A program made the position numbers and the translations under genes. A DNA stretch of 64,000 nucleotides, taken from positions 372,001 through 436,000 of the forward strand of contig NZ_CP032678.1 of NCBI RefSeq assembly GCF_003627215.1, given 5' to 3'. Shown here in pieces: positions 7,221 through 51,653 of this stretch (position 1 is its first letter; each line of letters opens with the position of its first letter). The stretch is from Pseudomonas sp. Leaf58. GTDB lineage: Bacteria; Pseudomonadota; Gammaproteobacteria; Pseudomonadales; Pseudomonadaceae. A model generated the notes under the pieces. It was not told where the DNA came from and did no database searches. It saw only the letters and a program-made list of their open reading frames with translations.

Positions 7221-7739
7221 TTATTGATCCGCTAGGGCCTCCAGAAATGGCGATCCCTGGGTGATCTCTATATAGCTGCCATGTGGCTGGTAGAGCATGT
7301 GTAGTGTGCTGGCTCGCCCATCGGCAGGGTGCTGCACACACTCGCCAGGCCAGTTGCCATCAATCACTGCGAGACCCAGCTGGGGGTGTCGGGCCGCGAT
7401 CACCCAGTGCCAATCACGCGGGCTGACATGTTCACCACAACCTCCCACTTTCAAGATGGCCAGCGCCGGCAGGCAATCCCAGTCCCGCCATTTGCACAAA
7501 CGAGTGCCCAGTCCTGCTATGGTCAGGGCCGCCCGCAGCTCCTTGAAGTTCGTGCCATACCCCGAGCGGTTAGGCCTGGGCCCACCATAGCCAAGTCGAT
7601 CAAAAATCGCCTGAGCCTGCTCGTAGCCAGTGCCCGCGACACCCGCCAGGGCGGCGATGCCGCAATCACCATTGCCCCGCTGCGCCACCCGTAGCGGAAG
7701 GCGGGTAATGCACGGAGCGCTTTTGGAGTCAAAGACCAA
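7221..7739 (-). CDS. Papain-like (C39-type) cysteine peptidase-like protein
   Basis: 172 residues. QRGNGDCGIAALAG near residue 20 places a candidate nucleophilic Cys at the start of a helix. WHWVIAA near residue 110 gives the His, and AVIDGN shortly after gives the Asp/Asn, the C39/papain-like order. The start is TTG 7739, inside the last codons of the upstream gene. The ribosome binding site (GGAGG) is formed by the LEA codons of that gene's LEADLGL tail, so translation is coupled. It could process or cleave partners encoded in the same operon; that is inference. Confidence 0.65.
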   Translation of the reverse strand: MVFDSKSAPCITRLPLRVAQRGNGDCGIAALAGVAGTGYEQAQAIFDRLGYGGPRPNRSGYGTNFKELRAALTIAGLGTRLCKWRDWDCLPALAILKVGGCGEHVSPRDWHWVIAARHPQLGLAVIDGNWPGECVQHPADGRASTLHMLYQPHGSYIEITQGSPFLEALADQ

Positions 7740-7962
7740 GATCCGCCTCCAGCTTCCACGTCAGCAGAGTGTCTTTGCCCGCGTTTTTCACTAGGTCGTC
7801 ATCAATCAGTGCGCCGACCAGCATGGCAGAATCTGGATCATTGACCCTGGCGGCAAGCTTTCGGGGCTGCAGTTGGTAATAGGCGACAATCGTGGCGGCA
7901 TACGCCTTCAAAGCCTCCCGCAGATTGGTACCGTCCGATCGGTTGGTGTAGTCCAGGGTCAT
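7729..7962 (-). CDS. 77-aa protein ending in LEADLGL
   Basis: The smallest carrier of the tail motif (LEADLGL-stop). The rest is a helical 70-residue protein without a recognised domain. Its start (ATG 7962) overlaps the stop of the upstream gene by ATGA, and its end overlaps the peptidase gene by 11 bp, so the three form a coupled set. A tail on so small a protein shows that the motif is separable from the large array proteins. Confidence 0.7.
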   Translation of the reverse strand: MTLDYTNRSDGTNLREALKAYAATIVAYYQLQPRKLAARVNDPDSAMLVGALIDDDLVKNAGKDTLLTWKLEADLGL

Positions 7963-9041
7963 AGGGGGGACAGGGCCATCAGTCGTGGCAGGGGCTTTTC
8001 CTGCGGCTGCGCCATCGGTTTCAGATCAGGGGTTAGGGCGCGGGTCAGTTCAATCATCATATTGAATTGAAGCGGCGAAAAGTACATGCCCACCACGCGC
8101 TCAGCCGTGGCGGCGATTTTGTCCAAGCTGGCAGGGGTCTTTAAGGCAGGGTAAGACTCTGGATACTGATCCAGGTAGCGGCTGGCAAAATCTCGAATCC
8201 CCTTGAGCAGCGTATTATTTTCGCTTTCGTCGCTGTACACCGTGAACTGCTCGATCAGCTTTAGATAAGTGTTTGCAGGCACGTGTGGAATATGCCCATA
8301 GACAATCGACGGATCGGGGTTTTCGTTCAGTGCTTTCAACACCGCCAGGTTGTTCTTCAGGGCCCTACTTGGGTCGAGGACATAAATGACCAGCGCAGCA
8401 TCCCTTAACGACGGGATGGCAAGGGGGGAGCGGGCAATGATTTCCATCAGCTCCACGCCTGACTGAAAGTTCGGGGAGGGCGCAAAGTAGCCAATGCGTT
8501 TAGCGATTTCGCCATACTGCTCCGCCTCCGACTTGGCGGGTCTAGGGGCCTGTTGCACCGCCTGCCTCATGGTTTTCAACGTCTCTTCCATCTGCAGCAA
8601 CAGATCTGGATCTTTGGCCACCCGCGCCAGCATAGCGCCACTGGTGCGGTGGTTTTCCATCATGAAGTAGATTTCAATCAGTGGCCTGTCTTCCAGCGGG
8701 GCCGTGGTTGCAATGGAATCGACCAGGCTGTGCGCCGCCTCGGCCAGCCCACCGCAGAAAAACCGAAAGGCCAGGAGCGCCCGCAGGGTTTCGGGCAGAA
8801 AGTGGTACTCCAGGTCATTCTCGCGATAGTCCCGGCGAATGGCCTTCTGACGACCCTCATCGGCGAGCACTTCCTGGATGATTTCTGCAGCTTCCTGGTA
8901 GCCGAGTAGATCAACCAGGTGTTGGAGATCAGCTTTGCGTTTGGGCTGTGTCAGGGCACGAAACGCCCAAGCCACCGGATCTTCTCCGGCGATCAGGCTG
9001 CCGAGGTAGTCCACGGGCTTTGGCTTGATGAAGTTGAACAT
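7959..9041 (-). CDS. Hypothetical helical protein, 360 aa
   Basis: Predominantly helical soluble protein resembling the neighbouring large genes in composition but ending MALSPL, not the tail motif. Lies 5 bp after the 9047-10573 gene and overlaps the next gene by ATGA, so it is inside the hipA operon. No domain recognised. Confidence 0.7.
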   Translation of the reverse strand: MFNFIKPKPVDYLGSLIAGEDPVAWAFRALTQPKRKADLQHLVDLLGYQEAAEIIQEVLADEGRQKAIRRDYRENDLEYHFLPETLRALLAFRFFCGGLAEAAHSLVDSIATTAPLEDRPLIEIYFMMENHRTSGAMLARVAKDPDLLLQMEETLKTMRQAVQQAPRPAKSEAEQYGEIAKRIGYFAPSPNFQSGVELMEIIARSPLAIPSLRDAALVIYVLDPSRALKNNLAVLKALNENPDPSIVYGHIPHVPANTYLKLIEQFTVYSDESENNTLLKGIRDFASRYLDQYPESYPALKTPASLDKIAATAERVVGMYFSPLQFNMMIELTRALTPDLKPMAQPQEKPLPRLMALSPL

Positions 9042-9046
9042 CGGTG

Positions 9047-10573
9047 TTATAGCCCCAACTCTGATTGAAGGATGGATTCTAAATCGCTGGCCCGCAGACG
9101 GTCAGTCAGACCTGGGATATCTGAAGTCACCAGCCCCAAAAACCTGAGGTCGACCAAGGAGATATCCACCTGATTGGCTAAGGCCTCTATCACGCTGGTC
9201 TTGAAGTGGTGATGGGCGGCCATCGCACCCTGGAATAGCGGGGCATACGGGGCGCCCATGAGGTTGCGCCCCTGCAGTTGCAGGATCGGCTCGAACAGGT
9301 TGATCACACTGGTTGGCTGATAGTGGCTCCAGGCGCCTGGGTGGGCACCGATTGCCTTGATTGCCTTGATAGAAGATTGCGTCGACAATGATTGAGTTTC
9401 CAGCACCTCATCCAGGGCCTGCAAATGCCCATGCCCGGCGTGGATCAATGCCTCGACCAACGGCGCATCGTGGTGCACACGCTGCGCTAGCTGGCGCTTC
9501 ACGACAGAGCCATAGTGTGCGGTGAAATACTCAAGGGACGCCTGTATCTCCACAGCGTTATGGCCGGCAAATGCCAGAACGGGCCCCTTGGCAAAGATCG
9601 GATGAGCATCAGCCTCAGGCACCCAGCTGCTGCCTTCACCAAAAACTTCTCGCAGGTGGTCAGGGCTGATCGACAACGCGTTATACAACACTTGGTTGAC
9701 CGTGGCCTCCATCTGTTCTGTACGCACATGGCGCCTGAGCACCAGGGGCGCCCGTGCACGCACGAGGCTGGCAATGGCGTTGGCCGGCAACCCTTGATTG
9801 ATCATCAGGAAAACCGGGTCGTAGATACTCAACGCAATCACATGCTGCGTATGATCACGGCGCACTTCGGCATCATCCCACTTGAACGCAATCACCTGGT
9901 GCAGTTTGACCAGCGCCTGTTCGAACAGGACGTCATCATGGCTGCCCAGCACCACCAGCTGGTGTCGTTCAGCCGCCGTCAGCTGACTGGGATTGATGTC
10001 AGGTGGAAGCAGCTCGCCGTAAAGAGCGTGATGAAGTGAATCATGGGCAATCCAGAGCAGATCCGGTCGAGGCGAGCAGACCCCACCGTACTGATACATG
10101 TCCTGCTCCAAGGTTTGGATTGATCGAGGCAGGGCATAGACCAGCAAGCTGATGGCCTTGAAGCGCGCTTCCAGCGGCGTATCATGGACAAACCATGCGG
10201 TGACTGCGTGGATGCCATGGTAAATGGCCCTGCCAATGACATCCACCACGTCCACGGTATCCAGCTCGGAGTTGGCAAACGCTGAAAGATTTCCGCCTGA
10301 AGCACAGTAAGCATGAATAAAATTGATGTCTTTGATGAACGCCCCTTCAATGGCCATCTGGAAGAAAGGGATACGCCGGGGGTTTGCCAGGTGTGCTTGC
10401 ACATAGGGCTCGAACAAGTTTCCACGCACGAAGCTGGCCAAGTCTGGATACGCGCTAAGGCTGGCACCCTGGTCATCAATGAATTGGTTGATCGCGCTGC
10501 AGATGTCTTGTGCCCGCACCTGCTCCTGGGTGGACAGCCCATTCAGCAGGTCTTGCGAAAACAGGCTCCTCAT
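9047..10573 (-). CDS. Large tail-motif protein (ends LQSELGL), 508 aa
   Basis: Helical protein of unknown function with C-terminal LQSELGL. ATG 10573 has GGAG about 10 nt upstream. Upstream in-frame starts include ATG 10582 and a GTG at 10609 that overlaps the XRE gene's stop (GTGA). It follows the XRE regulator gene directly, which links a tail-motif protein to the HipA/XRE module. The segment FAGHNAVEIQASLEYFTAHYG is the only distinctive stretch noted. Confidence 0.75.
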   Translation of the reverse strand: MRSLFSQDLLNGLSTQEQVRAQDICSAINQFIDDQGASLSAYPDLASFVRGNLFEPYVQAHLANPRRIPFFQMAIEGAFIKDINFIHAYCASGGNLSAFANSELDTVDVVDVIGRAIYHGIHAVTAWFVHDTPLEARFKAISLLVYALPRSIQTLEQDMYQYGGVCSPRPDLLWIAHDSLHHALYGELLPPDINPSQLTAAERHQLVVLGSHDDVLFEQALVKLHQVIAFKWDDAEVRRDHTQHVIALSIYDPVFLMINQGLPANAIASLVRARAPLVLRRHVRTEQMEATVNQVLYNALSISPDHLREVFGEGSSWVPEADAHPIFAKGPVLAFAGHNAVEIQASLEYFTAHYGSVVKRQLAQRVHHDAPLVEALIHAGHGHLQALDEVLETQSLSTQSSIKAIKAIGAHPGAWSHYQPTSVINLFEPILQLQGRNLMGAPYAPLFQGAMAAHHHFKTSVIEALANQVDISLVDLRFLGLVTSDIPGLTDRLRASDLESILQSELGL

Positions 10574-10605
10574 TTTGACCATTCTCCAAGTATGCAGGAC
10601 GACCT

Positions 10606-11001
10606 TCACGTTACATTGTTATTCGCCCGCGCTTTCTTACGCAGGGAGCGGTTCTTGGCCGCAATTGGGTTGGTGCCACGCATGGAGGTGTTGAGCGCCA
10701 GCTGGTCACTTTTGCTTAGTATGACCTCATCACGCACGATGGCGCCAAGCGTCATTCGCATCCCAAACTTGTTCAGGATGCTATTGAGGGTATTGATGGT
10801 GGGATTGGCCTTGTCGTTTTCCAGCTGGTACAGCGCCTTCGTCGACATCTGGCACATTTTGGCGAAAGTGGTCTGATCGAACCCCGTGACCTCGATCCGC
10901 AACCGGCGAATGGAGGTGCCCAGCGTCTGCCTACCCAGGACATTTTCCTTGAGGATATCTTCGATCAGCATTTGGCGCTGTTCGGGACGGAGGTGGTTCA
11001 T
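10606..11001 (-). CDS. XRE-family helix-turn-helix regulator paired with HipA
   Basis: 131 residues. An HTH of the XRE/HipB type spans roughly residues 42-95 (TTFAKMCQMSTKALYQLEND, then NPTINTLNSILNKFGM). A basic C-terminal tail (NRSLRKKARAN) follows. The start at ATG 11001 overlaps the hipA stop by ATGA and has GGGGG 6 nt upstream. By analogy with HipB it should neutralise HipA and repress the shared promoter. Gene order is the reverse of the usual hipB-hipA. Confidence 0.8.
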   Translation of the reverse strand: MNHLRPEQRQMLIEDILKENVLGRQTLGTSIRRLRIEVTGFDQTTFAKMCQMSTKALYQLENDKANPTINTLNSILNKFGMRMTLGAIVRDEVILSKSDQLALNTSMRGTNPIAAKNRSLRKKARANNNVT

Positions 11002-18772: not shown

Positions 18773-19945
18773 TCACATGCCCAGGTCTTCCCCGAGGATG
18801 TCCTCGCGCAGACAGTCGAGCTGAAGGAGAACGCTTTTTGGGAAAGCGTCGGACAGCATAGCCAGCAAAGCCTGCTTTGCGTCCTTTTGCTTGATGCCAT
18901 TGGAATCTTTGGCGCCGTCGATCAGGGTGGTCATAATACGATTGACTGCCGCCGGATTTTGCAGGCTACCCGTCTCCGCGCCTGAGTCAGACGGCTTGTT
19001 TAAAAACCTGATGACAGCCGGCGCTATCAAGTAGATGTTGCTGCTCTTTGCAATCATGTTCCACTGTTCTTTTGGAAACTCAAGATTGGGGTAGCGATCA
19101 ACTAGGGTGAGAAGTGCGACGATTTCCTCGTTGCTCAGACCGACCTTGCCGCGCTGGATGGGGAAGAGCTGGTCGAGCTTGGAGCTCAGGCCTTTGTCAC
19201 CAAAGTACTGATGGGCGATATCAAGGTAGGCGGAATCCATCTGCCGGATATCAAATTTGGTGTTGTCGAATACTGTTTGCGCCAGGTCATCATGGCCTGC
19301 CGCGCATAGCGGCGGGATGATCGTCAATGTTTCGACCCAATGCCCTTGCACCGCCGCAGCGGCTTGGATGACCGGCATATGGTTTTGCAAAATGCGGTTC
19401 ATCTGCTCAGGCCACGGCGCCGAGATGGTGCTCATATGGTAGATGATCTCCTTCCCACCCATATCGTCCTGGCTGATATCAGGCATGGACAGGGCCGTCT
19501 CAAACAACTTCAGCGCAATATCTTGGCTCTTGGAAGACAGCGCCGTGCAATATTCGCCAACACAACCGGGTCGCGAATCTTCGAATAAGCACCACTGCAA
19601 GTTTTCAAGAATCTGGTTATCCAGGGCCTCCGTAATGCCCAAATGCGCCGCAAGATTCCGACCTGCAGCCACGAAGGGGATAGTGGCCAGCAGTACGTGC
19701 ATGTGATCAGGGGCAATGGTCGGAGCCCCGGTGTCGGGGTCGCGGCGATCAGAACGAAGGAAGCCGCTGAGAAGTTGCTGTCGTAAGTCAGTGATGGCTC
19801 TATTTAGCCCGTTGGCAGCCAGGTCTTTGAAAACGGCATTCAGTGCTTCCAGCGGTGCAAGACAGGCTTGAAAGCCACTGTCTTCACAGGTTTCGATCAA
19901 TGCACTGCCTTGATTTCGCATTTGCACAGCGAGCAACATATCCAT
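18773..19945 (-). CDS. Tail-motif protein (ends LGEDLGM), 390 aa
   Basis: Last gene of the 25-kb array. Mostly helical, no catalytic motif seen. The C-terminus EDILGEDLGM is nearly the same as that of the next gene upstream (EDILGEDLGL), although the bodies of the two proteins are not obviously similar. Starts 3 bp after the upstream gene's stop. Confidence 0.75.
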   Translation of the reverse strand: MDMLLAVQMRNQGSALIETCEDSGFQACLAPLEALNAVFKDLAANGLNRAITDLRQQLLSGFLRSDRRDPDTGAPTIAPDHMHVLLATIPFVAAGRNLAAHLGITEALDNQILENLQWCLFEDSRPGCVGEYCTALSSKSQDIALKLFETALSMPDISQDDMGGKEIIYHMSTISAPWPEQMNRILQNHMPVIQAAAAVQGHWVETLTIIPPLCAAGHDDLAQTVFDNTKFDIRQMDSAYLDIAHQYFGDKGLSSKLDQLFPIQRGKVGLSNEEIVALLTLVDRYPNLEFPKEQWNMIAKSSNIYLIAPAVIRFLNKPSDSGAETGSLQNPAAVNRIMTTLIDGAKDSNGIKQKDAKQALLAMLSDAFPKSVLLQLDCLREDILGEDLGM

Positions 19946-21114: not shown

Positions 21115-21163
21115 GGCAAGATCCTCGATATATCCCCAGTGTACCACCAGCCATCATGGCCAA

Positions 21164-22102
21164 TTAAAGCCCTAAATCATTTTCCAGGTTCGCTTGAACA
21201 TCCAGCTCAAGCCCCTTGGCCTGATATTGCTCCTGAACCCAGGCCATCAGCCCCTGGCCACCTAGGTGTGGCAAAGCCCCCTGGCCACGGATTTCCCAGA
21301 GGATTCGGCTTTCTGCGCCCTTGGTTAGCCACGTTATTTGGCGCGTGACGGGGTTTCGAGTGGCCTGCGGAAACCGTGCATGGACAATCGCCGCGCCCGC
21401 CGCTTGAATGGTGCAAGCGATCGATTTGAACTCAAGTGACCCACCGCGCAGGAGCAAGCGATTGGACTCTTCGAAGAGTTGCAATACGACATCCAGTGCA
21501 CCTTCCAAGGTGCTGGCGCCGCCGCGCAGCCCCTCACGGTCGAGCCACTTGAGCATGTCGACATGATCGCCAAATTTGTTCATTGCTTGGACTTGGCCAA
21601 GCTCCTGCGTGTGGTGGATGACCTCGAACTGTATTGGGCCCGCCAGGCCAGGGGCCAGGGAGAATGGCTCAACCTTCTGGTTTGGCAAAACAAAAGCCCC
21701 TGCCACATCGGCGACAAAAAGCGCGAAAGATGGATATTCGGTCACTGCGCTAATCAGTCGATCGAAAGCTTCCTCTTCCTCCGGATGCTGCTGCAACTCG
21801 GAGATCAACTCGTTCAAGGGGATCTGGGCGCCGCGCAGACTGGCCTCGATTTGCGCATCGCACAGGCGATTGAGCTGTTTCGCCAGGTGCGAAAACTGCA
21901 ACTCATCCCCGAGCTCCAGGCGCATGTGATCGCCCAGCCATTGGAGGCCAGTCGGGATAGAGCCATCTAGGTACAGGGCGGGCAAGTAGCAGTCGTCTGC
22001 CGGGGAAGGTGTGCGCAATTCCTCCTTAAGCTTCAACCAGAAGAAAATGTCCAAGCGACTGTCGAGCAGTTTCAACACCTGTTTCTCTCGCGACTGGCTC
22101 AT
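21164..22102 (-). CDS. Tail-motif protein (ends LENDLGL), 312 aa
   Basis: Start ATG 22102 overlaps the upstream stop (ATGA). N-terminal half helical, C-terminal half more beta-rich than in other array proteins (LEFKSIACTIQAAGAAIVHA). DLGL is encoded gat-tta-ggg-ctt here, unlike its neighbours. Confidence 0.75.
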   Translation of the reverse strand: MSQSREKQVLKLLDSRLDIFFWLKLKEELRTPSPADDCYLPALYLDGSIPTGLQWLGDHMRLELGDELQFSHLAKQLNRLCDAQIEASLRGAQIPLNELISELQQHPEEEEAFDRLISAVTEYPSFALFVADVAGAFVLPNQKVEPFSLAPGLAGPIQFEVIHHTQELGQVQAMNKFGDHVDMLKWLDREGLRGGASTLEGALDVVLQLFEESNRLLLRGGSLEFKSIACTIQAAGAAIVHARFPQATRNPVTRQITWLTKGAESRILWEIRGQGALPHLGGQGLMAWVQEQYQAKGLELDVQANLENDLGL

Positions 22103-39659: not shown

Positions 39660-39660
39660 A

Positions 39661-40710
39661 TCAGATCCCCAGGTCATTCATGAGTTGTTGTTCCATGTAC
39701 AGTGGTGAGAGCTCCAGCACTTTACGGGGCAGTCTCTCGTAGACTGGGTGTTTGACACCCTCTGAATGCGCAACCAGGTGATCCAGGAGCGCGATGTAGC
39801 GTTCGCTGGTGTAGACCTCAGGCTTGTCCGCAAACAGCCTCAGGGCATGAAACAGGTGCTCTTGATGCACAGGCTCGTTCGCCGGCAGTTCAATGCCACC
39901 GTATTCGAGGTAATAGCGCACCACCGCCTCAACGGGTTTGGCGCTAGCGGATGCCCAGCAGCGCTCCAGCCGCGAATCGCTGGGGGTGCGGTCAAGGGTC
40001 GCCCTCATCCAGACGAGATCTTCCCCACTAGGGATCATGTCAGAGCCGGCGAAGATCTCCTCGGCGAACCGGCGAACGCCATACTCCCAAAGTTTTCGGC
40101 CACAGGACAGACTGCACGCACGCACCCCAACGCTGGTGCGGTCGGCAAGTCTGACAATCGTCTGTTCATGCCGGATCAATATCTCGCGGTGTTCGTATTG
40201 GGCGGCTTTTGCCAACACGTGGGCCAGAGGGAAATCGATCAGGACGGTATCCTCCTGCTCGCACGTGTTGACCAGGTGGTCAATAATGCGTGCTGCCAGG
40301 TGGGTGGGCAAATGCTCGTAACGCAACAGTGATAAGTAGGCGACTGCATTGACATACCGCACCGCCTCAAGTCTCGGCACGCAATGTGCCTCGATCATAC
40401 GCTCAAGGAGCTCTTCGGACAGACCCCTCAGCCCATTTACTAGCTTGATCGACGGGGTGAAGTGATCGCAATAGGCCGTAGTTGCATCACTGAGGAATCC
40501 TTCCTTTTCCCATCGATGGCTGCCAATGGACAGCAAAATTGTTTCGAGAATCCCGCTTACCGTCGACGTCATGGCATCACGATCATGCCCTGGCGAGGAT
40601 GATATCTCCACGTTCAGCTGGCCCATCAGCTTGTCTATATCAAGCGTTGCCGGGCCATGGCAATGTTGGCGGAAGTCATCAATCAATCGGTCTATTCGCA
40701 GGCTACTCAT
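39661..40710 (-). CDS. Tail-motif protein (ends LMNDLGI), 349 aa
   Basis: Only member with a terminal Ile after an intact DLG. Helical. ATG 40710 lies 4 bp after the upstream stop. No recognised domain. Confidence 0.75.
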   Translation of the reverse strand: MSSLRIDRLIDDFRQHCHGPATLDIDKLMGQLNVEISSSPGHDRDAMTSTVSGILETILLSIGSHRWEKEGFLSDATTAYCDHFTPSIKLVNGLRGLSEELLERMIEAHCVPRLEAVRYVNAVAYLSLLRYEHLPTHLAARIIDHLVNTCEQEDTVLIDFPLAHVLAKAAQYEHREILIRHEQTIVRLADRTSVGVRACSLSCGRKLWEYGVRRFAEEIFAGSDMIPSGEDLVWMRATLDRTPSDSRLERCWASASAKPVEAVVRYYLEYGGIELPANEPVHQEHLFHALRLFADKPEVYTSERYIALLDHLVAHSEGVKHPVYERLPRKVLELSPLYMEQQLMNDLGI

Positions 40711-40713
40711 CGA

Positions 40714-42318
40714 TCAGAGTCCCATATCCAGTTCGAGCATGGCGGCACGCGCCGCTTCAGGGACGTTGAAATTCAGCTGCCCCACCACATCACCGCCCCA
40801 CTGCAGGAACTCGATCGCTGCCGTGTCCAACAGGTCGTGCGCATGTAGCATCTGCAGGGTATGGATCTTGACCTCATCACGCTCTGTCAAACCCCGCAAT
40901 TTCTGGATGCCTGCTTTGAGCGGCAAGTATTCAGGCCCGTACAGGGGTTGCGTGCCAAGCGACCATCTGCGTGGAATATGGGCCTGCTGCGCCCAGACGC
41001 ATGCTGCAAAGTAGGCTCCGCGCAACAGTGCCGGGGTGCTCTGATCAATGAACGGGGCCTGCTCGATCACCAGCGGCCACAGCTCTTGGGGTATGCCGTT
41101 ACGCCAGTGTCGGCTGAGCTGGCTGTGTTGCTCACGTGAATTGTCCGCCTGGCACACCCGGCTTAGGGCGGCAAAGCCGGTCGGCGATGATTCAAAGCGG
41201 CTGACGGGTATGCACTGCTGGCGCTCCATCACGGCGAGCATCGCAATGCAGCCGTGCCTGTCCCCTGGTGACAGGCGCTTCCATTGCCGGGTGGCTTCGA
41301 GGCGCTTTTCTTCCAGAAGGTCGTGATCCGCAAAACGCAGGCCCCAGAACCGCTCGGTTTCAACGATCACACTGTGGGTCATGATCTTAGCCAGAAATTC
41401 CAGGCTGTCCTGACTTACCAGGTAGCGCAACAAGCCCTTCATCCTGTTCCGCAGATCGTTCCAGGTATCGGCGGGGTTACGCTGACTGGCCACCGCCTGG
41501 CGACCAGGAATCTCCACCAGCGGCACCATGGCCACGACCGCCGCATTCATGCGGGCGACGATCCCGGTGTCATCCTTGTCGACCACGACACTTCGGCGCG
41601 CTAACTCATCGATTTCGTGTTGGAGAGCAAGTTCTGCGGTTAGCCGCGCCAGGGTGCTTCTGTCGACGCCTGAGGTCTTAAGTGCCTCCAGCGCATCCTT
41701 ATCTTCCACTTCAAACAGCGGGGTTGAGACGGACGTGACTGCCGTGAACTGTTGGGCGGTAAAGAATCCCCGGTAAGGCCTGGATCCGAATACCGCGCCA
41801 AGAGCCGCCATCGTCAGATGGCCGTTCTCATTGGATTGATCATAGAAATGCTTACGTATCTTGGTCTTTGACCAGGCTTGGTACACACGTTTGGCAAAAG
41901 CCTCGGTAAATTCAACCGTACGGGCGCCATGCACCAGCCCCATGCTGCGGAACAACCCTCGAACGCCGCCGCTGCCAAGCCGGTCAATGACGGGCAGTGT
42001 GTCGATATCAGAGTGAAAAATGCGCATGAAATCGCTGGCGCGCCCCCCGTCTTGCAGGAAGGCTTCCACGGCGGCCAGGTGCTCGTCCTCGACGAAGCAA
42101 TTCAAGTCGAACGTTGGCCAGCCCAGTTCAGCGCCTTGCTCAATATAGGCCTCGGGCAGCTCTTTTTTCTTTGTGAAGGCGGCCAAATTCGGATACTTGT
42201 CCGGATCTTGCCCGATGCTGAGCAAAAATACATTGATAGACGCCGTGATGTCCTGGCAGCGGGCACGAAATTCGGGAACCATCAAGTCGTCAGGCAGGGA
42301 GGTAAAGAGGGCCTTCAT
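40714..42318 (-). CDS. Tail-motif protein (ends LELDMGL), 534 aa
   Basis: Largest member in the main array. Its opening (ALFTSLPDDL, then DITASINVFL and YPNLAAFTKKKEL) parallels the opening of the 9047 protein (SLFSQDLLNGL, AINQFIDDQG, YPDLASFVRGNLF), so these two are paralogues although they lie 30 kb apart. AGGA lies 9 nt before ATG 42318. Confidence 0.77.
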   Translation of the reverse strand: MKALFTSLPDDLMVPEFRARCQDITASINVFLLSIGQDPDKYPNLAAFTKKKELPEAYIEQGAELGWPTFDLNCFVEDEHLAAVEAFLQDGGRASDFMRIFHSDIDTLPVIDRLGSGGVRGLFRSMGLVHGARTVEFTEAFAKRVYQAWSKTKIRKHFYDQSNENGHLTMAALGAVFGSRPYRGFFTAQQFTAVTSVSTPLFEVEDKDALEALKTSGVDRSTLARLTAELALQHEIDELARRSVVVDKDDTGIVARMNAAVVAMVPLVEIPGRQAVASQRNPADTWNDLRNRMKGLLRYLVSQDSLEFLAKIMTHSVIVETERFWGLRFADHDLLEEKRLEATRQWKRLSPGDRHGCIAMLAVMERQQCIPVSRFESSPTGFAALSRVCQADNSREQHSQLSRHWRNGIPQELWPLVIEQAPFIDQSTPALLRGAYFAACVWAQQAHIPRRWSLGTQPLYGPEYLPLKAGIQKLRGLTERDEVKIHTLQMLHAHDLLDTAAIEFLQWGGDVVGQLNFNVPEAARAAMLELDMGL

Positions 42319-42365: not shown

Positions 42366-43505
42366 CTACAGCCCAATGTCACGCTGCAGGTAGGCTTCGC
42401 GCAACGTTTCGATTTCCATCAGGCCTTCCAGGCGAATATCAGCGACCAGAATGTGGCTCACCAACCGTGGCTTGTGCGTCACCAGGGTGCGCAAGACCTC
42501 GACCAGCCGTTGTGGCCCATGTGGCTCCGGCAGCTCCATGGTGTTGATGTTCTTGATCCATCCAGTCAGTACGTCAAACGCGATGGCGCTGCGCACCAGG
42601 TGATCCAAAGGCAGCACCAGTTCAGGGTTTTGAATGGCGTAACAAAGGTGCTCCAGCGTCAGATTGCCCGGCACACTCACCAGTTTGTCGTTGAAGTAGG
42701 CGGGGGCTGGGGCTTTGCCGATCGACGCCAACCGGTGCATGGCATTGTACGAATTACCTGTATTTTCGGGCCTCAAATGGGCCGGGACAATGGAGCCTAT
42801 GCCCAGTTTGTGCAGGGTGACGAACAAATCGAGACCAATCCAGCCATGCTTGCCGCCCACCATGTCACAGGGCAAATTGATCAGTTGTTGCAGGCACCGC
42901 TGTTTGCGCTGCAGTAAATTATGGGTATGCGGGTTGTCCGGGCAGTGACTGAGGTGGTTGTTGAGCGCCTTGAGGGCTGCAATGCAATGCTCGTGGCGCG
43001 TGCTGACTTGCTGATTGCGGAATTTTCCGTCCTTCGACAAGGCCAGGAACTTGCCAAATAGAGTGGCGAAGGAAGCTTCTGCGCCCTGGCAACACGCCGC
43101 GAATTTCCCGAGTGTGTGCAGGAATGGCAAGATGATGGATTGCCGAGGATCTGAGGCCAGAATTTCGGCCAGGCGCTCGCGCCCCGCTGGGCTCAGCGAG
43201 GGGAGTACCAGGCGATTGTAGTCATGGGTCGTGCCGAGGTGCTCGGCGATGGCCAGCACCACCTGGTCTGAGCGATGTGATGCCTCCAGGGAGGTGAGGG
43301 GTGTCAACGCATTGACCCAGGCACTGTGGCTGTACACCGAGCCTTGTGTGAACGCCGTGTTCAGCAACCCTCTGACCACACGCAGATGATCGGGCAGATC
43401 CGGCCACTGTGGATCGACCTTGATGCACCTGCAGATGTCCTGGATGTAATGATCAAAGGCTTGCAGATCCATCGGGTTGGTGAGGGCTTTTTCCTGGCTG
43501 TTCAT
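42366..43505 (-). CDS. Tail-motif protein (ends LQRDIGL), first gene of the main array
   Basis: 379 residues; ATG 43505 has AGGGA 7 nt upstream. A sigma70-like promoter sits just before it (43532-43560). Helical, with RLAEILASDPRQSIILPFLHTL near residue 120. Tail has Ile in place of the first Leu. Confidence 0.75.
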   Translation of the reverse strand: MNSQEKALTNPMDLQAFDHYIQDICRCIKVDPQWPDLPDHLRVVRGLLNTAFTQGSVYSHSAWVNALTPLTSLEASHRSDQVVLAIAEHLGTTHDYNRLVLPSLSPAGRERLAEILASDPRQSIILPFLHTLGKFAACCQGAEASFATLFGKFLALSKDGKFRNQQVSTRHEHCIAALKALNNHLSHCPDNPHTHNLLQRKQRCLQQLINLPCDMVGGKHGWIGLDLFVTLHKLGIGSIVPAHLRPENTGNSYNAMHRLASIGKAPAPAYFNDKLVSVPGNLTLEHLCYAIQNPELVLPLDHLVRSAIAFDVLTGWIKNINTMELPEPHGPQRLVEVLRTLVTHKPRLVSHILVADIRLEGLMEIETLREAYLQRDIGL

Positions 43506-43531
43506 GGTGTATTCCCTGGACTTGTACTGAA

Positions 43532-43560
43532 ATAGTACTGTTCTACCTACCAATTATCAA
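43532..43560 (-). promoter_or_regulatory. Promoter of the 25-kb array
   Basis: On the minus strand TTGATA (43560-43555), 17 nt, TACTAT (43537-43532), upstream of the first array gene. The -10 lies inside the small palindrome GTACT-GAAAT-AGTAC, a possible operator. No other good promoter was noticed before 18.8 kb, so the array may be one transcript. Confidence 0.5.
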
Positions 43561-45297: not shown

Positions 45298-46123
45298 TTA
45301 CAATCCAAGGTCGCACTCCAATAAACCTGCGAGAAGCGGGCCATGGGCTGCAATTCCTTCGGCAAGTTCCCGCGAGCCAAAAACCTCCGCTGCGACCCGC
45401 AAATGCGCGTCGGTTTCTATGAGCAGGCAGACGTCCTTGAGAGGCTGTGCGCCTAGCTAGGCCTTCAGCAGAAACGCAAAGTTGCCAGGCGTGCCCTTGA
45501 GGTGGCGAAAGCAGTCAGCCACATCCTTGGGCTTCATCGGATTGCAGGATCGGGGCCATCAACCCTCCTTGATCTGAATGATCAGCTCGCTATAACCGTG
45601 GTCTTTGACCTGAGTTGAAATTTCGCTCAAGGCGAAATCGCGGAACACAACAGGGCAGCCAGGTTCGGCAGACAGGGAGGCCTGGGTTTGCAGGCGCTCC
45701 GACAGGTAAGCTTTCAGGTATCGAGGCATGAAGTCCACTGCCGCTGGATATAGTGCAACCAGTTCCGTCCCATGGAGTGCCATGAAGTTAAGGTTGAGGC
45801 GGGTGATGGCTTGCGCATTGGCGGTGACTGCCCGCAGCGCCAACTCCAGGTAGCTTGCGGGTTCGACGGCGCGAGCCGGAATCAGGCTAATCAGCCGGGG
45901 ATCCATTCCACGATTAATCGCTGCAGATAGGCCGATTGGCCGTTGAACCATGGCGGCAGAAAGGCCGCATTGGCAGGCTGAAAGCCAATGTACGTGGCGG
46001 CCAGCTCCGGGTTAGACACGAGGCGGGGGAGTCGACAATTGGGACACGCGTAGCCTGGCGCTGCACTTCTTGGCTATTCGCGGGATTGAAACCGTGCGCG
46101 GCGATGAATTCTTCGATGTTCAT
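45298..46123 (-). pseudogene. Decayed tail-motif protein gene (ends LECDLGL)
   Basis: Reading the minus strand, an intact start (ATG 46123, AGGA upstream; MNIEEFIAAHGF) shifts frame at about 46020 (SNPELAATYIGF) and again at about 45910 (LISLIPARAVEP). It then meets in-frame TGA at 45559-45561 and TAG at 45457-45459, and still ends LLAGLLECDLGL-stop at 45298. At least two frameshifts and two stops make it a dead copy of the array family. No single open frame spans it. Confidence 0.75.
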
Positions 46124-46788: not shown

Positions 46789-47925
46789 TCACAGGCCAAG
46801 GTCTTCTTGCAGCACCCCTTCAACTGCTGAATCTTCCTCCATAAGGTTCAAATAGAACGGATCCTTGCAGTGGTAATAACGGCGTTTGCGGATCTTGTCG
46901 GTGTCCAGCCCGGTGGCCACCAGTTCCTTGGGAAGCGTATCCATGACCAGGTTACAGAAATGGCGCGAAGCTTCGTGGTCAGCCGAGTTGCGAAACGCAA
47001 AGGCACTGAGAAAGAGCTTGAGGGCCTGCTCCCGATCCGCCTCGCCCAGATCATCATCCAGCGCCGCTATGTTGCTGCCGTTTTGCGTGGACAAGGTGAA
47101 GGCTGAAAGCCAGTCCAGGCCTTGGCTGGACAAGTGATTGATGACCTGTCCAAGGCCGTGTATCCCATCGGCGCCAATGCCATAGCGCAAGCCGGTATTC
47201 ACCAGATCGAAGATCTCCTGGGCGATCGCCTGGCCATAGCGCGTCATGAACGCCGGGGAGAGCGCCGGCATATCGACAAGCTTGCACTCACTGGCCAGGC
47301 CACTGGCCTGCCACACGCGTCTGGCATTGTTCACCACGCGGGCGTAGCGCTCCTCTGCACCCAGTTCAGCACAGCCAAACACCATCGTTCGGATTTCGGA
47401 GGCATCAACGCTCAGTGGCTGGGTGAACAAAATGGGCTTGATCAGCGACTGCAAGTAAGACGGGTAGCGGCGGTAGCCCTTGGCCGTCATGTCCATTTCA
47501 CCCTCGATCAAGGCCGAGTAGGCGCTGAAGTGCTCCGCCAGGTTGTAGGCCAGCATGTCCCTGATCATGTCTCGGCGGTTGCTGAACAGCGCTTCGAAGG
47601 TGGCCAATGGTTCGACCGAAGCAGGCACGAGGGTCAAGATACTTAACCCCGCTGCATTCAGCGCTTGTGCTTTTTCCCCTACGAAATTGAGCAGCGGCCC
47701 CATCAGTATATTGTAATTCGGGCCTGCCGCTGTTTTTGAGAGCTGTGCAGCGAGCTCGACCCAAGGGCTGTCGGGGCGCTGCTCGATGGTGTCGACAATC
47801 AGGTGGGCGGTTGCCAGCACCGCGCTCTTGTAACTGGTTGGACTGTGCTCTTTGCCAGTTTTTCCGAGGATGTCAGCAATCAACGGGTCAATAGCTGTCC
47901 CATGTTGGTGGATGTAATCCTCCAT
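46789..47925 (-). CDS. Tail-motif protein (ends LQEDLGL), N-terminus possibly frameshifted
   Basis: 378 residues from ATG 47925, which has a poor ribosome binding site. The likely original start is ATG 48005, 9 nt after GGGGC in the preceding tail codons: that frame reads MESKNKLLNYFMEL and then stops. The frame of this gene is open upstream as APFSYARAAFM. One indel near 47955 would join them, adding about 26 residues. Helical. Confidence 0.68.
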   Translation of the reverse strand: MEDYIHQHGTAIDPLIADILGKTGKEHSPTSYKSAVLATAHLIVDTIEQRPDSPWVELAAQLSKTAAGPNYNILMGPLLNFVGEKAQALNAAGLSILTLVPASVEPLATFEALFSNRRDMIRDMLAYNLAEHFSAYSALIEGEMDMTAKGYRRYPSYLQSLIKPILFTQPLSVDASEIRTMVFGCAELGAEERYARVVNNARRVWQASGLASECKLVDMPALSPAFMTRYGQAIAQEIFDLVNTGLRYGIGADGIHGLGQVINHLSSQGLDWLSAFTLSTQNGSNIAALDDDLGEADREQALKLFLSAFAFRNSADHEASRHFCNLVMDTLPKELVATGLDTDKIRKRRYYHCKDPFYLNLMEEDSAVEGVLQEDLGL

Positions 47926-48009: not shown

Positions 48010-48930
48010 TCAAAGCCCCAAATCCAGTGTTAAGAAATCTTGAAGCACCTGCTCCCCATGGCCCAGCTGAACCTCCCGCTCAAGCAGTGCCTGACAAAGC
48101 TCCTGGGTGGTGAAGCCACAGTGGGCGTTATAGTAGTCCGGTATGTCATCATGTTCATGCCCAGGTTTGTGCCACACGATACCCTGAGCCTCTTGATAAC
48201 CTTCGAGCAGCGTAAACCCATAGAACTTTAATTGCAGACACATGCCGCGATGCAATGAGCCATCCCGTGCAGCCTGGAGCAGGGCATCCATGGCCTGCTC
48301 AAAGCAACCGTGGGTACTGATCAGGGTTTGCTCATAAAAGGGCGTCGGATCTTCCGCGCCGTCCACATTGAGCATCCGTCTTTCCCGGATGTGCTGCAAC
48401 CAGAAGCGCTGACTGAAAATTTCAGCGGGGCGAAGCTGGCTGGTGCGATCACAACGGTACTGCCCCTCCTCATGAACATACGCCTTCAGGGCTTTCGCCG
48501 CCTGCTCGATCACCTGAGGCTGAGGTCGATACGCTTCCAGAAATGCATCCACCTTGCTCCCCACGAGCGCTTCGAACACCCGATCAACCACGCAGCGCTC
48601 GTGGCTAGACATTGCCTGCAGGGCCCAGACCAGTTTGTCGAAGCGCAGCAGGTGCTCATCTTCCGGGGTAAATTCTCGGGAAAAGCTCATGACCATCAAT
48701 GTGCACATCAATGGATTAGGGGACTTGCTGCTGAAACCGCCCTCGACTACGGTCACGTGGAAACAATTGAAAAGGATGTCACAGACCACGGGGTTGCGCT
48801 CCAGATCGTTATCAGCGGCGATCCAGAAGTCAGTTGTGGTGATTTGACTATACCGATTGCGATGAATTTCTGCTGTCTTGGCAAACGCCTTGGACAGCGT
48901 GAAATTTTCGATTGGCTCTATGGGATTCAT
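48010..48930 (-). CDS. Tail-motif protein (ends LTLDLGL), 306 aa
   Basis: ATG 48930 has AGGAG 8 nt upstream; an in-frame start at 48981 overlaps the preceding tail and is less likely. Helical N-terminal two-thirds, then a mixed segment MCLQLKFYGFTLLEGYQEA. No domain recognised. Confidence 0.75.
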   Translation of the reverse strand: MNPIEPIENFTLSKAFAKTAEIHRNRYSQITTTDFWIAADNDLERNPVVCDILFNCFHVTVVEGGFSSKSPNPLMCTLMVMSFSREFTPEDEHLLRFDKLVWALQAMSSHERCVVDRVFEALVGSKVDAFLEAYRPQPQVIEQAAKALKAYVHEEGQYRCDRTSQLRPAEIFSQRFWLQHIRERRMLNVDGAEDPTPFYEQTLISTHGCFEQAMDALLQAARDGSLHRGMCLQLKFYGFTLLEGYQEAQGIVWHKPGHEHDDIPDYYNAHCGFTTQELCQALLEREVQLGHGEQVLQDFLTLDLGL

Positions 48931-48980
48931 GGCAGCGCTCCTCTTACTCTCAGTATGCAGGCTGCCGAATCCGCAAGTCA

Positions 48981-49934
48981 CTAAAGCCCCAAGTCATCCA
49001 TCAAGAAACGCTCAGCGGACTTGACTTCGCCCAATAGCGCCACTTCCACCTCATACAACGTGTCGGCAATGATTTTGGTATTGACTGGGCATGGCGAGTC
49101 CCATCGGCCATAGGTGTGAGCGTGTTTTTCCCACGTGTATTCATCATTGAGTCGCATGCAGGAAAGCAGTTGGTAATCTTTGAGGTACACGAAGACACTG
49201 CGATCTTCGCTGTTGTCTGGCAAATGCGTGAAGACCGCTTCGATCGCTTGCTTGAGAGTTGCGTGGTAGCTTTCGGTTTGAGATTTAAAGTCTTGCTCAG
49301 GTGGGTTGCCCCACGAGTAAATCATTTCCATGTCACAGGTGACCACTGAAAACCGATACCCAAACAACGCATCGCGGTACCAGCGTCCTTCAAACGGGCA
49401 TTTGCTATACGCTTGCTCCCCAACCTGCCGGCGCTGGCGGTCGGGCGGCAAGCGGCCAGGGCCCAGTACAGCCGCCTGGGTGGCACCAGCTTCCAGTTGT
49501 GCAAAGTCGATCCCTGCAACCTTGGTGAACACTTTCTGAAGCGTTCTGGCGCTTTCCTCATCACCGGTTAGCCGCCGTTCTACCTCATCCCAGTCCACCC
49601 AATCGGAAACCCGCCAGGGGTGCCGAGCTTGCCACAGCGAATGTTCGACACCATGGAGCACCTCGCTAACCCACTGCTGATCAGAAATCTTGTTGGCATA
49701 CATGCATTGGAGCAGGTACGGCTCAGGCTTGCTGGCCTGGTACTCGCGGTACTTAATGGGCGGCAAGCCCAGGAGCGCGAGAAACTGCTCCACGTGCTTG
49801 GAAAAGACCTGCTCGGATTCCAGCCCCTGAGGCACGTGCTCTTGAAACGCAAAGGAGCGGATGTGTCGTCCACGGCGGGCCGCGAAATGCTGGGTCAGCC
49901 GCCATTGCTCCAGGGATGATCGTGGTCGATGCAT
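48981..49934 (-). CDS. Tail-motif protein (ends LMDDLGL), 317 aa
   Basis: ATG 49934 with GGAG 6 nt upstream. More beta content than most members (YRFSVVTCDMEMIYSW near residue 206). First gene of the second block, divergent from the plus-strand member at 50103. Confidence 0.75.
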   Translation of the reverse strand: MHRPRSSLEQWRLTQHFAARRGRHIRSFAFQEHVPQGLESEQVFSKHVEQFLALLGLPPIKYREYQASKPEPYLLQCMYANKISDQQWVSEVLHGVEHSLWQARHPWRVSDWVDWDEVERRLTGDEESARTLQKVFTKVAGIDFAQLEAGATQAAVLGPGRLPPDRQRRQVGEQAYSKCPFEGRWYRDALFGYRFSVVTCDMEMIYSWGNPPEQDFKSQTESYHATLKQAIEAVFTHLPDNSEDRSVFVYLKDYQLLSCMRLNDEYTWEKHAHTYGRWDSPCPVNTKIIADTLYEVEVALLGEVKSAERFLMDDLGL

Positions 49935-50102
49935 GTAACACTCCAAGGCCCTGCTCTTTTCTTCACTTTACCCACGGAGCTCAAGTATCGTCAGCTATCA
50001 CCTGGCTGACCTGGATGCTGTTCGCTCGCAATGCTCCCTTGTTAAACTCAGAGTATCTTCAGCCGGCGCCAGGCTTGGCTTATCTCGAATTGTGAGTGCA
50101 CC

Positions 50103-51653
50103 ATGTCGAAAGTGATTCCCAACCCTGAACTCATCCTTAAAAATCTCGTGAAGAAATTGTACATGGGCCTTGAGGATGAAACCTATGATCCGAAGAAGAC
50201 CATCGGCAGCCAGCTGAAGGGCCCTGGTTTTTTGCAGCGTCAATTCTGGGAAAAATTCATCGACGCTTTCAATGAGCGTTTCAGCGGCCAGACCTATGAC
50301 ACGCAGGCCCTGTGGAAAGCTTTCCTCGACCAGGACATTGACCCGTTTCATGTCGAACACCAGATCGTGACAAAGTCCTACACCCGCAAAGAGAAATCGG
50401 CGCGTATGGTGCAACTGCATAACCCCTTGGCATTGCCCAAAGAGGAGGGTGGCGTAGGCCCGGTGGAGTATATCCGCCAGTGGGACGCGCTGCTGGATCG
50501 CAGCCATGGGTTTGTCGCGCCCTATGAAATTGACGACCAGGTTATTGCGCCCATGTCGCTGGCACCCAAGCAGCGCTTTTTCGAGAAGGCACTGCAGTCG
50601 GAACATACGGCTTTGTTCATGTATGCCTCGCGGCACTACGAGGACTACCTGAACGCCTGGGTTGACGGATTGCCCCGATACAGCAGCAAGGATCGTGTGG
50701 CCGTTGCCAAGAAGCTGATTGAAACCATCTGTGACTCTGGCATTAAGATGCCAAGCGCTACTGCACGTGCCGTGGGTCGCATGGGGCCTGCCTTGCTGCA
50801 AGCCGCCACCCTGCTTCAAAAGGTGGACTTTGGCACCGAGCTTGACGCGGGCTATCTCAGCAGCAACCTGCCAAGAGCGCTGGTATTGCATTTCCCCCAG
50901 CCTATGGAGCGTGTCGAAGCCGCGAAGGTCATCATGGGCATGAAGCTGCCTGAAGCCACGGCGGGTGCGCTGGAGTCAATGTTGCTGGAGCCTGAGTATG
51001 CGGTCGAGGCGCTCTCAAGCATTGAGCCTGAAGCGGCACTTGAGGCCTTTGGTAAAGAGTTGGGCTCCGCCATAGGCATTCACACGTACAACACCGTCAA
51101 TAGCGTGCCCCAGCTGATTGCCCTGGTTGAAACCTACCGAGAGCTGTTTATCCAGTATGGCATCGGCGACATCAAGGGGCATTCCTGCCTGGACGCCCTT
51201 TGTGTATCCCTGGAGGCTGCCGAGTACTTCGCAGTTAAGGGTTACATCCGAAGCAGTCCTGAGCTGAACTACGGCTACTCACTGTCTTCCCGCACTCCCT
51301 TCATTGCTCGGCTCACAACCATCAGTGCCGAGGACAAGACCCTGCAGAAGGAGGAGGTGGACAGGGTTTTGGATATCCTGACCAAACTTAATGCCATCAA
51401 CACACTGACTCCTTCCATTGAAGCCTATTTCAAGAATGACGTAGTGGTGGAGGTATTCATGAAACGCCCGGCTTTCGAGCACCTGGTGGTGCGGTTGATC
51501 GAGCGCGCCCAGGTTGATATCCATGAGCTGATCCGCACTGAAACACGCCTGAAGAAAGTTCAGGCGCTGGGTGTTGACCCACGCGCCCTGGAGGGCTTGA
51601 AGCTGTTCGACAAGCACCTGGACAGCTACCTGAGCAGAGACCTCGGCCTTTGA
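50103..51653 (+). CDS. Solitary plus-strand tail-motif protein (ends LSRDLGL), 516 aa
   Basis: Helical protein, the only tail-motif gene on the plus strand. The tail is followed by a terminator, with no downstream gene, so its tail cannot be explained by translational coupling. Segments such as LPRALVLHFPQPMERVEAAK (about residue 257) show no match to known domains. It shares a divergent promoter region with 49934. Confidence 0.78.
   Translation: MSKVIPNPELILKNLVKKLYMGLEDETYDPKKTIGSQLKGPGFLQRQFWEKFIDAFNERFSGQTYDTQALWKAFLDQDIDPFHVEHQIVTKSYTRKEKSARMVQLHNPLALPKEEGGVGPVEYIRQWDALLDRSHGFVAPYEIDDQVIAPMSLAPKQRFFEKALQSEHTALFMYASRHYEDYLNAWVDGLPRYSSKDRVAVAKKLIETICDSGIKMPSATARAVGRMGPALLQAATLLQKVDFGTELDAGYLSSNLPRALVLHFPQPMERVEAAKVIMGMKLPEATAGALESMLLEPEYAVEALSSIEPEAALEAFGKELGSAIGIHTYNTVNSVPQLIALVETYRELFIQYGIGDIKGHSCLDALCVSLEAAEYFAVKGYIRSSPELNYGYSLSSRTPFIARLTTISAEDKTLQKEEVDRVLDILTKLNAINTLTPSIEAYFKNDVVVEVFMKRPAFEHLVVRLIERAQVDIHELIRTETRLKKVQALGVDPRALEGLKLFDKHLDSYLSRDLGL

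What the first reader, a model, noticed from the sequence alone, without database searches (positions are those of the whole stretch)
7729..51653. A C-terminal tag, Lxx[DE]LGL, shared by 26 otherwise diverse proteins
Twenty-six loci end in Leu-x-x-acid-hydrophobic-Gly-hydrophobic and then stop: LEADLGL, LQSELGL, LGEDLGM, LENDLGL, LCLDLGL, LLGDLGL, LEVDLGL, LEVDMSL, LELDLGL, LETELGL, LETDLGL, LESDLGL, LEFDLGL, LEIDLGL, LGRDLGL, LEDELEI, LSNELGL, LMNDLGI, LELDMGL, LQRDIGL, LECDLGL, LQEDLGL, LTLDLGL, LMDDLGL, LSRDLGL, and a second LGEDLG. The -7 Leu is present in all. Bodies range from 77 to 534 residues and are mostly not alignable by eye. Leu codons differ freely (tta-ggg-ctt, ctt-ggt-ctt, ttg-gga-ctg, ctc-ggc-ctg). 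A conserved extreme C-terminus on variable bodies is how docking or sorting signals look, for example cargo-loading peptides. I know of no described system with this tag.
Basis: seen in the sequence. Interest (0 to 1): 0.9.

Follow-up and report, generated by a model that had tools for sequence, protein, structure and literature searches.

The report
Megaplasmid-private C-terminal protein address tag
Giant plasmids of Pseudomonas bacteria end about a hundred or more otherwise dissimilar proteins with the same short C-terminal tag, and each plasmid lineage spells the tag in its own way, which points to an undescribed molecular address system.

Summary
The window lies on a 0.90 Mb megaplasmid of the pMPPla107 type. 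On four related megaplasmids (this one, pMPPla107, pPL1, FeN3W) 148, 156, 102 and 94 proteins end in one 11-residue tag; fewer than 1 is expected per plasmid by chance. A fifth plasmid (P. serbica) carries it too. The bodies are mostly soluble, dark proteins of many families (helical in the two modelled); only the tag is shared. Each lineage has its own dialect: E..LE.DLGL here, R[DE]..[FLM][GA].DLGL, G..FS.DLGL, and KK..[IV]S.[DE][LF][EDGS][LI]. Orthologues with bodies about 25% identical keep the last four residues 84-93% identical, by different codons, yet carry the dialect of the plasmid they sit on. That fits one plasmid-encoded receptor reading the whole set. I think the receptor most likely belongs to the plasmid's Dot/Icm-type conjugation secretion system, making tagged proteins translocated substrates (about 0.4). 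An intracellular docking hub is nearly as likely. The beta-clamp, encapsulin and one-family readings fail tests. No receptor was shown and nothing was tested at the bench. I found no description of such a tag in the papers searched.

The parts
7729..7962 (-). tagged ORF, 77 aa, LEADLGL
9047..10609 (-). tagged ORF, 520 aa, LQSELGL; orthologue M_529467 in pMPPla107 ends FARELGL
18773..19945 (-). tagged ORF, 390 aa, LGEDLGM
19948..21147 (-). tagged ORF, 399 aa, LGEDLGL; orthologue in pMPPla107 ends MGVDLGL
21164..22114 (-). tagged ORF, 316 aa, LENDLGL
22857..24221 (-). tagged ORF, 454 aa, LCLDLGL; orthologue in pMPPla107 ends FMMDLGL
24104..25303 (-). tagged ORF, 399 aa, LLGDLGL
25368..26444 (-). 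tagged ORF, 358 aa, LEVDLGL
26447..27634 (-). tagged ORF, 395 aa, LEVDMSL; orthologue in pMPPla107 ends FGVDLGL
27574..28032 (-). tagged ORF, 152 aa, LELDLGL; overlaps 27915-28718 in another frame, perhaps one interrupted gene
29625..30962 (-). tagged ORF, 445 aa, LETELGL
30969..32276 (-). tagged ORF, 435 aa, LETDLGL; near-identical relative P0007 modelled as all-helical; orthologue in pMPPla107 ends FAVDLGL
32291..33559 (-). tagged ORF, 422 aa, LESDLGL
33647..34843 (-). tagged ORF, 398 aa, LEFDLGL
34861..36051 (-). tagged ORF, 396 aa, LEIDLGL
36048..36887 (-). tagged ORF, 279 aa, LGRDLGL; orthologue in pMPPla107 ends LGQDLGL
36948..37922 (-). tagged ORF, 324 aa, LEDELEI (weak variant)
38292..39677 (-). 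tagged ORF, 461 aa, LSNELGL; orthologue in pMPPla107 ends MGADLGL
39661..40710 (-). tagged ORF, 349 aa, LMNDLGI
40714..42318 (-). tagged ORF, 534 aa, LELDMGL; orthologue in pMPPla107 ends MATDLGL
42366..43553 (-). tagged ORF, 395 aa, LQRDIGL; orthologue in pMPPla107 ends FAADLGL
45298..45456 (-). 52-codon open frame ending LECDLGL, not listed as an ORF of 40 aa or more; probable remnant
46789..47925 (-). tagged ORF, 378 aa, LQEDLGL; orthologues end LAADLGL (pMPPla107) and ASSDFGL (FeN3W)
48010..48981 (-). tagged ORF, 323 aa, LTLDLGL; orthologue in pMPPla107 ends FGADLGL
48981..49946 (-). tagged ORF, 321 aa, LMDDLGL
50103..51653 (+). tagged ORF, 516 aa, LSRDLGL; all-helical model; orthologues end LGSDLGL (pMPPla107) and IRNDLGI (FeN3W)

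Best explanation
The tag is a C-terminal address signal: the last 11 residues form the end of a helix plus a free C-terminal hydrophobic residue, and one plasmid-encoded receptor reads it on the whole tagged set. Because the receptor drifts from plasmid to plasmid, all tags on a plasmid change together, giving four dialects. I think the receptor most likely belongs to the coupling complex of the megaplasmid's own Dot/Icm-type (MPF_I) type IV secretion system, so that the tagged, soluble, fast-evolving proteins are translocated substrates. Recipients would most plausibly be cells met in conjugation; eukaryotic targets are not excluded. SHOWN: the tag, its replicon restriction, the dialects, its conservation above the bodies, the scarcity of membrane segments, and the presence of the secretion system. 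MODELLED on two proteins only: the tail as the end of a helix. INFERRED: a single plasmid-encoded receptor (about 0.85). CONJECTURE: that the receptor is the secretion system's coupling complex (about 0.4, the figure given below for the whole statement).
For: Tag counts of 148, 156, 102 and 94 against under 1 expected. A blind search from random seeds recovers the sets in equal-sized samples of all four plasmids in most runs. Tails name their plasmid in 481 of 500 leave-one-out assignments. In 72 orthologue pairs between this plasmid and pMPPla107, residues -11, -10, -7 and -6 agree no more than in shuffled pairs (13 against 11.8, 13 against 10.1, 21 against 21.2, 13 against 9.5; all within 1.5 sd), so the dialect follows the plasmid and not the gene. 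Last four residues 84-93% identical against 26.7% overall in 61 tagged pairs; in 266 untagged pairs the last four are less conserved than the body (34-41% against 49.6%). Tagged orthologues are faster evolving (median 25.5%, n=61) than untagged (49.3%, n=387), and tags are absent from the first 100 kb of this plasmid and of pMPPla107, which in pMPPla107 holds partition, replication and some conjugation genes. Membrane-segment-like stretches in 3 of 500 tagged proteins against about 15% of untagged ones. Both models end in a helix that runs into the tag. DotA/TraY, DotD/TraH, DotG, DotH and DotI proteins are annotated on pMPPla107, and DotO-like, TraI-like, DotD, DotH and coupling proteins are in all four plasmids. 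The coupling protein's C-terminal third varies more (33-55%) than its ATPase core (71-94%); its N-terminus is also variable (43-61%). Legionella Dot/Icm effectors are reported to be recognised by an extreme C-terminal leucine or hydrophobic residue, by an E-block, or by a motif on a C-terminal helix (PMC7251119, Discussion read).
Against: A related Vibrio megaplasmid with the same kind of secretion system (DotO-like 40% identical) shows no tag set in 257 ORFs from 250 of its 883 kb, nor does the M. extorquens AM1 megaplasmid in 182 ORFs from 200 of 1261 kb (one and four Vibrio ORFs did pass the S and F models against 0.13 expected). So that kind of secretion system does not require the tag. 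The tag is far more uniform than Legionella signals as described. Few tagged proteins have a recognisable domain (3 of 125 here; 10 family matches among 88 in FeN3W, five of them DUF4116), so no effector-like activity is recognised. The FeN3W dialect is basic, not acidic, upstream. In 6 orthologue pairs with pMPPla107 only one partner is tagged. No receptor was identified. The sets were chosen with each plasmid's own model, so the 481 of 500 is partly circular. Positions -8, -5, -4 and -3 keep a slight gene memory.
Confidence: 0.4

Rival explanations
1. The tag docks the proteins inside the cell onto a plasmid-encoded hub or polymer (a scaffold, compartment or regulator), in the way the eukaryotic peroxisomal PTS1 or encapsulin loading peptides work (both recalled), and nothing is secreted.
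For: All shown facts fit equally: short C-terminal motif, free C-terminus, many soluble proteins, concerted dialects. 177 genes without the tag are shared by all four plasmids, any of which could be the hub. Vibrio relatives have the secretion system but no tag set in the part sampled.
Against: No shell or hub was found: no encapsulin family match in this genome or in three plasmids, and no PDZ_6 match on the three plasmids or on C2. No tagged enzyme set is recognisable.
Confidence: 0.38
2. One superfamily of helical repeat proteins whose last helix has a conserved cap; the tail is structural and family-inherited, not an address.
For: Some bodies are remotely related: 7 of 276 profile pairs reach probability 80 or more against 0 of 276 with untagged controls. 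Both models are all-helical and the tag ends the last helix. Gly at -2 would suit a helix C-cap (recalled).
Against: 24 profiles remain 19 groups. Only the tail is conserved. Four plasmid dialects switch in orthologues. FeN3W mostly lacks the glycine (20%).
Confidence: 0.08
3. The tag is a degradation signal read by a protease adaptor.
For: Hydrophobic free C-termini can be degrons (recalled).
Against: A constitutive degron on about 100 or more proteins with private dialects would need a plasmid-encoded adaptor; none was sought beyond PDZ_6.
Confidence: 0.07
4. The tag is a sliding-clamp (beta-clamp) binding motif that brings the proteins to DNA replication.
For: DNA polymerase IV binds the clamp by QLVLGL and the consensus is QL[S/D]LF (PMC3716654, passages); DLGL resembles the second half.
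Against: The conserved glutamine is missing: Gln at -6 in 8 of 148, 3 of 156, 2 of 102 and 0 of 94. The three named plasmids gave no match to the clamp family searched and in this genome the matches are on the chromosome only, so a host clamp would not explain plasmid dialects. The plasmid DnaE proteins instead hold QGMLF or QGSLF.
Confidence: 0.03

Closest known systems
C-terminal translocation signals of Dot/Icm (type IVB) secretion substrates, Legionella
   Same: Extreme C-terminal hydrophobic residue, recognition elements on a C-terminal helix (in the two models here), very many soluble proteins, a Dot/Icm-type machine on the same replicon
   Different: Here one strict 11-residue motif with replicon-private dialects; no known effector domains; no transfer shown; the related Vibrio plasmid lacks a tag set in the part sampled
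Peroxisomal PTS1 signal and encapsulin cargo-loading peptides (recalled)
   Same: Short C-terminal address on many unrelated soluble proteins
   Different: No shell gene found; receptor unknown; coordinated spelling change between plasmids
Polymerase IV beta-clamp motif QLVLGL (PMC3716654, passages)
   Same: C-terminal L-G-L
   Different: No glutamine, an extra upstream half (-11 to -7), no plasmid clamp found

Membership tests
Dot/Icm (type IVB) secretion substrates | a type IVB machine is encoded with the candidates | tested here: met
   Dot-type genes and coupling protein on pMPPla107 with DotO-like, TraI-like, DotD, DotH and coupling proteins in all four plasmids
Dot/Icm (type IVB) secretion substrates | extreme C-terminal leucine or hydrophobic residue | tested here: met
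   Leu at -1 in 91, 96, 78 and 47% (FeN3W Leu or Ile 91% together) and Leu at -3 in 88, 97, 91 and 55%; criterion from PMC7251119
Dot/Icm (type IVB) secretion substrates | E-block (EExxE) near the C-terminus | tested here: inconclusive
   No consensus E-block within -11 to -1: single Glu or Asp at -10 in two dialects, basic residues in FeN3W; further upstream not scanned; not all effectors have it
Dot/Icm (type IVB) secretion substrates | translocated into another cell in a machine-dependent way | not testable with these tools
   needs a transfer assay
Beta-clamp binding motif | conserved glutamine at the first position (-6) | tested here: not met
Beta-clamp binding motif | a clamp able to explain plasmid-specific spelling | tested here: not met
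   PF02767: none on W01-W03; chromosome only in own genome; rings in 10 of 14 controls
Encapsulin cargo | encapsulin shell gene in the genome or plasmid | tested here: not met
   PF04454: 0 of 4 records; rings in 3 of 14 controls
PDZ ligand | plasmid-encoded PDZ domain | tested here: inconclusive
   PF17820: 0 of 3 named plasmids and none on C2; other PDZ models not run
Single homologous family with ordinary tail | bodies alignable and tail no more conserved than body | tested here: not met
pMPPla107-type megaplasmid (for the replicon) | shared gene order and core genes with pMPPla107 | tested here: met
   498 reciprocal best hits, largely colinear in the first 100 kb

The most novel reading that the evidence does not exclude
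Pseudomonas megaplasmids run a private protein-addressing code: each lineage carries its own receptor and its own spelling of an 11-residue C-terminal tag on roughly a hundred or more proteins. This keeps the accessory proteome of one plasmid apart from that of the host and of rival plasmids, and it either delivers that proteome to recipient cells during conjugation or gathers it in a plasmid-specific assembly.
Probability: 0.5. Interest if true: 0.95.

Novelty: categorically new. Interest (0 to 1): 0.86.

Why it matters
Roughly 100 or more uncharacterised genes on each of these megaplasmids (8-16% of ORFs of at least 100 aa on four plasmids) become one testable group with a predicted common receptor. 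The four dialects are a ready-made specificity experiment: swap tags and see which plasmid's machinery accepts them. If the secretion reading holds, conjugative megaplasmids would deliver large effector sets; if not, bacteria would have an intracellular address code owned by a plasmid. The tag also marks such plasmids in genomes. If the secretion reading is right the novelty falls to a new variant of a known kind.
Full report
WHERE IT IS. The window is bases 372,001-436,000 of contig C2 (904,163 bases) of a genome of 6.34 Mb in two contigs. A tagged protein of the window finds pMPPla107 of Pseudomonas amygdali pv. lachrymans (971,889 bases), and a DUF6384 protein finds it and the megaplasmids of Pseudomonas sp. 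FeN3W (909,734) and P. silesiensis pPL1 (1,168,067). I call the four Q (own), M (pMPPla107), S (pPL1) and F (FeN3W). Mechanical ORFs give reciprocal best hits of 498 (Q-M), 311 (Q-S) and 346 (Q-F). 185 Q genes have reciprocal best hits in all of M, S and F, 177 of them untagged by the first-pass motif. M carries DNA polymerase III alpha and epsilon, DnaB, primase, topoisomerases and a Dot/Icm-type conjugation system, and Q gyrase A and B and RecA. Such replicons are rare: 2 of 398 genomes drawn from the family match the DotO-like profile at E of 1e-200.

THE OBSERVATION. The 25 complete tagged ORFs and one remnant are as described. A codon pattern for the heptapeptide and stop gives 149 hits in the genome against 17 for the reversed pattern. 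Eight listed hits are on the chromosome, which is listed first; the list was cut within C2. The same pattern gives 112 hits on M (control 3), 93 on S (3), 2 on F (5) and 0 on pNY8709-IMP (1). In 398 genus genomes only the own genome stands out, with 90 hits against at most 6 elsewhere for a narrower pattern. P. serbica IT-P366 has 108 hits by a looser pattern (control 37); most of the listed ones are on its contig C1, which by its extent I take to be the 1.06 Mb plasmid.

THE TAG IS ELEVEN RESIDUES LONG AND HAS DIALECTS. I built a position model of the last 11 residues for each plasmid by iteration, with a cut-off passed by 0.05% of internal 11-mers of the same proteins. Hits: Q 148 of 917, M 156 of 978, S 102 of 1239, F 94 of 861 proteins of at least 100 aa; expected 0.46, 0.49, 0.62 and 0.43. 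Q: Leu -7 97%, Glu -6 41%, Asp or Glu -4 94%, Gly -2 94%, Leu -1 91%, Glu -10 43%. M: Asp or Glu -10 92%, Arg -11 63%, Phe, Leu, Met or Ile at -7, Gly or Ala -6 80%. S: Phe -7 98%, Gly -10 57%, Ser -6 50%. F: Lys or Arg at -11 85% and -10 81%, mostly Ile, Leu or Val at -7, Asp or Glu -4 68%, Leu or Phe -3 90%, Leu or Ile -1 91%. F was seeded from homologues of tagged proteins and from a basic-residue filter, so I repeated the search blindly from random seeds on 250 kb samples, 12 runs each. Most runs converged on about 39 hits (Q), 57 (M), 26 (S) and 20-33 (F), while some stayed low at 6-17; a Vibrio sample of the same size gave 3-11 and an AM1 sample of 200 kb 1-6. Control runs of the procedure on untagged proteins of the four plasmids gave 1-25 hits, and on positions -26 to -16 gave 7-33. 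Left out one at a time, 481 of 500 tails are assigned to their own plasmid; since membership was set with the plasmid's own model this is partly circular. All 25 distinct P. serbica tails taken from 30 loci by the tag shape score best as S dialect. Gene models: 24 of 24 tagged minus-strand M genes in 389.7-439.2 kb end at a RefSeq stop.

THE TAG IS SELECTED APART FROM THE BODY. In 61 Q-M tagged orthologue pairs overall identity is 26.7%, while positions -4 to -1 are 84, 87, 93 and 87% identical. In 266 untagged pairs overall identity is 49.6% and the same positions are 34-41%. Codons agree at 67 of 214 identical last-four residues. In 72 Q-M tagged pairs (no coverage limit), agreement at -11, -10, -7 and -6 is 13, 13, 21 and 13 against 11.8, 10.1, 21.2 and 9.5 in shuffled pairs, within 1.5 sd. 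At -8 (12 against 6.5) and -5 (9 against 4.6), and slightly at -4 (59 against 56.7) and -3 (60 against 57.5), the gene's own history still shows. So the dialect positions follow the plasmid. Examples: Q RADILMDDLGL, M RDEILMSDLGL and S QGKIFGEDLGL all pair with F KKPILLSQLDL; Q LDSYLSRDLGL pairs with F KKNIIRNDLGI. In the window 12 tagged genes have reciprocal M orthologues, in the same order, with tails mostly in M spelling. Against full conservation: in 6 Q-M pairs only one partner is tagged.

THE BODIES. 491 tagged proteins of at least 150 aa, tails removed, form 247 clusters with 149 singletons. Of 276 profile pairs among 24 larger clusters 7 reach probability 80 or more, against 0 of 276 with untagged profiles, leaving 19 groups. 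So there are many families, some remotely related. Pfam at E up to 0.01 finds 3 families, one member each, in 125 Q members, one of them TerD (one search places it in tagged ORF Q_740462), and 6 families in 88 F members, five proteins with DUF4116. 23 of 148 Q and 6 of 94 F proteins were left out of these scans for size or stretch limits, and M and S were not scanned. Membrane-like segments: 3 of 500 tagged against 66 of 429, 69 of 439, 93 of 571 and 68 of 453 untagged. Models of window 50103-51653 (pLDDT 81.4, pTM 0.77) and of P0007, 98% identical to window 30969-32276 (74.7, 0.55), are all-helical but for stray bridges, with a last helix running into the tag. Fold searches give only weak helical-repeat matches.

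MECHANISM. A strict free-C-terminus motif on many soluble proteins that changes in concert per plasmid is best explained by one receptor per plasmid. The chromosome lacks the tag set and the hosts are close relatives, so the receptor should be plasmid-encoded. I prefer the coupling complex of the Dot/Icm-type system for four reasons. It is on all four plasmids. Its substrates are known to be read by C-terminal elements (PMC7251119, Discussion section read). The coupling protein's C-terminal third is among its variable parts. Finally, the tagged set looks like an effector set: fast-evolving, clustered, soluble, outside the core. Against it stands the Vibrio relative without a tag set in the 257 ORFs sampled. 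The hub reading is nearly as likely. Neither was tested directly.

LITERATURE. Papers naming pMPPla107 (19 listed; passages of PMC4105467 and PMC8544880 seen) describe the plasmid's spread and costs; PMC4105467 reports a self-transmissible ~1 Mb plasmid needing a type IV secretion system. The passages seen mention no tag. Searches for megaplasmid with C-terminal motif (no paper), for DLGL or LGL motif (3 listed), for megaplasmid with tag or paralogue terms (2 listed) and for FeN3W (1 listed) gave no description of it in their listings. Many subscription papers are missing from the library and no bioRxiv preprints are held.

LIMITS.

Noticed in passing
window 28715-29692 (-): RlmN-like radical SAM protein (TIGR00048, 64.8 bits, far below its 290 cut-off), conserved at 57-68% in M, S and F and with tagged genes within 5 kb in all four, densely so in Q and M.
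   Followed up: partly
C2:885153-887699 and C2:892605-895133: A plasmid-encoded SecA-like protein (orthologue annotated in pMPPla107 as DEAD/DEAH helicase) lies near the type IV coupling protein; both have orthologues in all four megaplasmids. A second SecA on a conjugative plasmid is odd.
   Followed up: partly
C2:42905-44425 (-): The plasmid DnaB ends in PYPDIPF, like the tip of single-stranded DNA binding protein (recalled).
   Followed up: no
window 27574-28718 (-): Two overlapping ORFs in different frames, only the second tagged: probably one interrupted tagged gene.
   Followed up: no
window 43713-44777 (+): RNA ligase (PF09414) with orthologues in all four megaplasmids, inside the tagged region; the Vibrio relative also has an RNA ligase family protein.
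   Followed up: no
window 53345-61983: Block with a DUF6384 protein and conserved unknowns, with weak Pth2-like and HAD-like matches below cut-off; TerD and vWA-TerF proteins lie elsewhere on C2.
   Followed up: no
L307 and L309 (G206, probably Pseudomonas benzenivorans, chromosome): Run of about eight small ORFs (71-120 aa), several ending like LExDLxL, with a tail tape measure gene about 18 kb away; a relative is named colicin-immunity-like. Looks like a separate family.
   Followed up: partly
C2:751653-752783 (-): TnpB/IS605-type protein 92.6% identical between this plasmid and pMPPla107, well above the median of 49% for untagged genes: perhaps a recent transfer.
   Followed up: no
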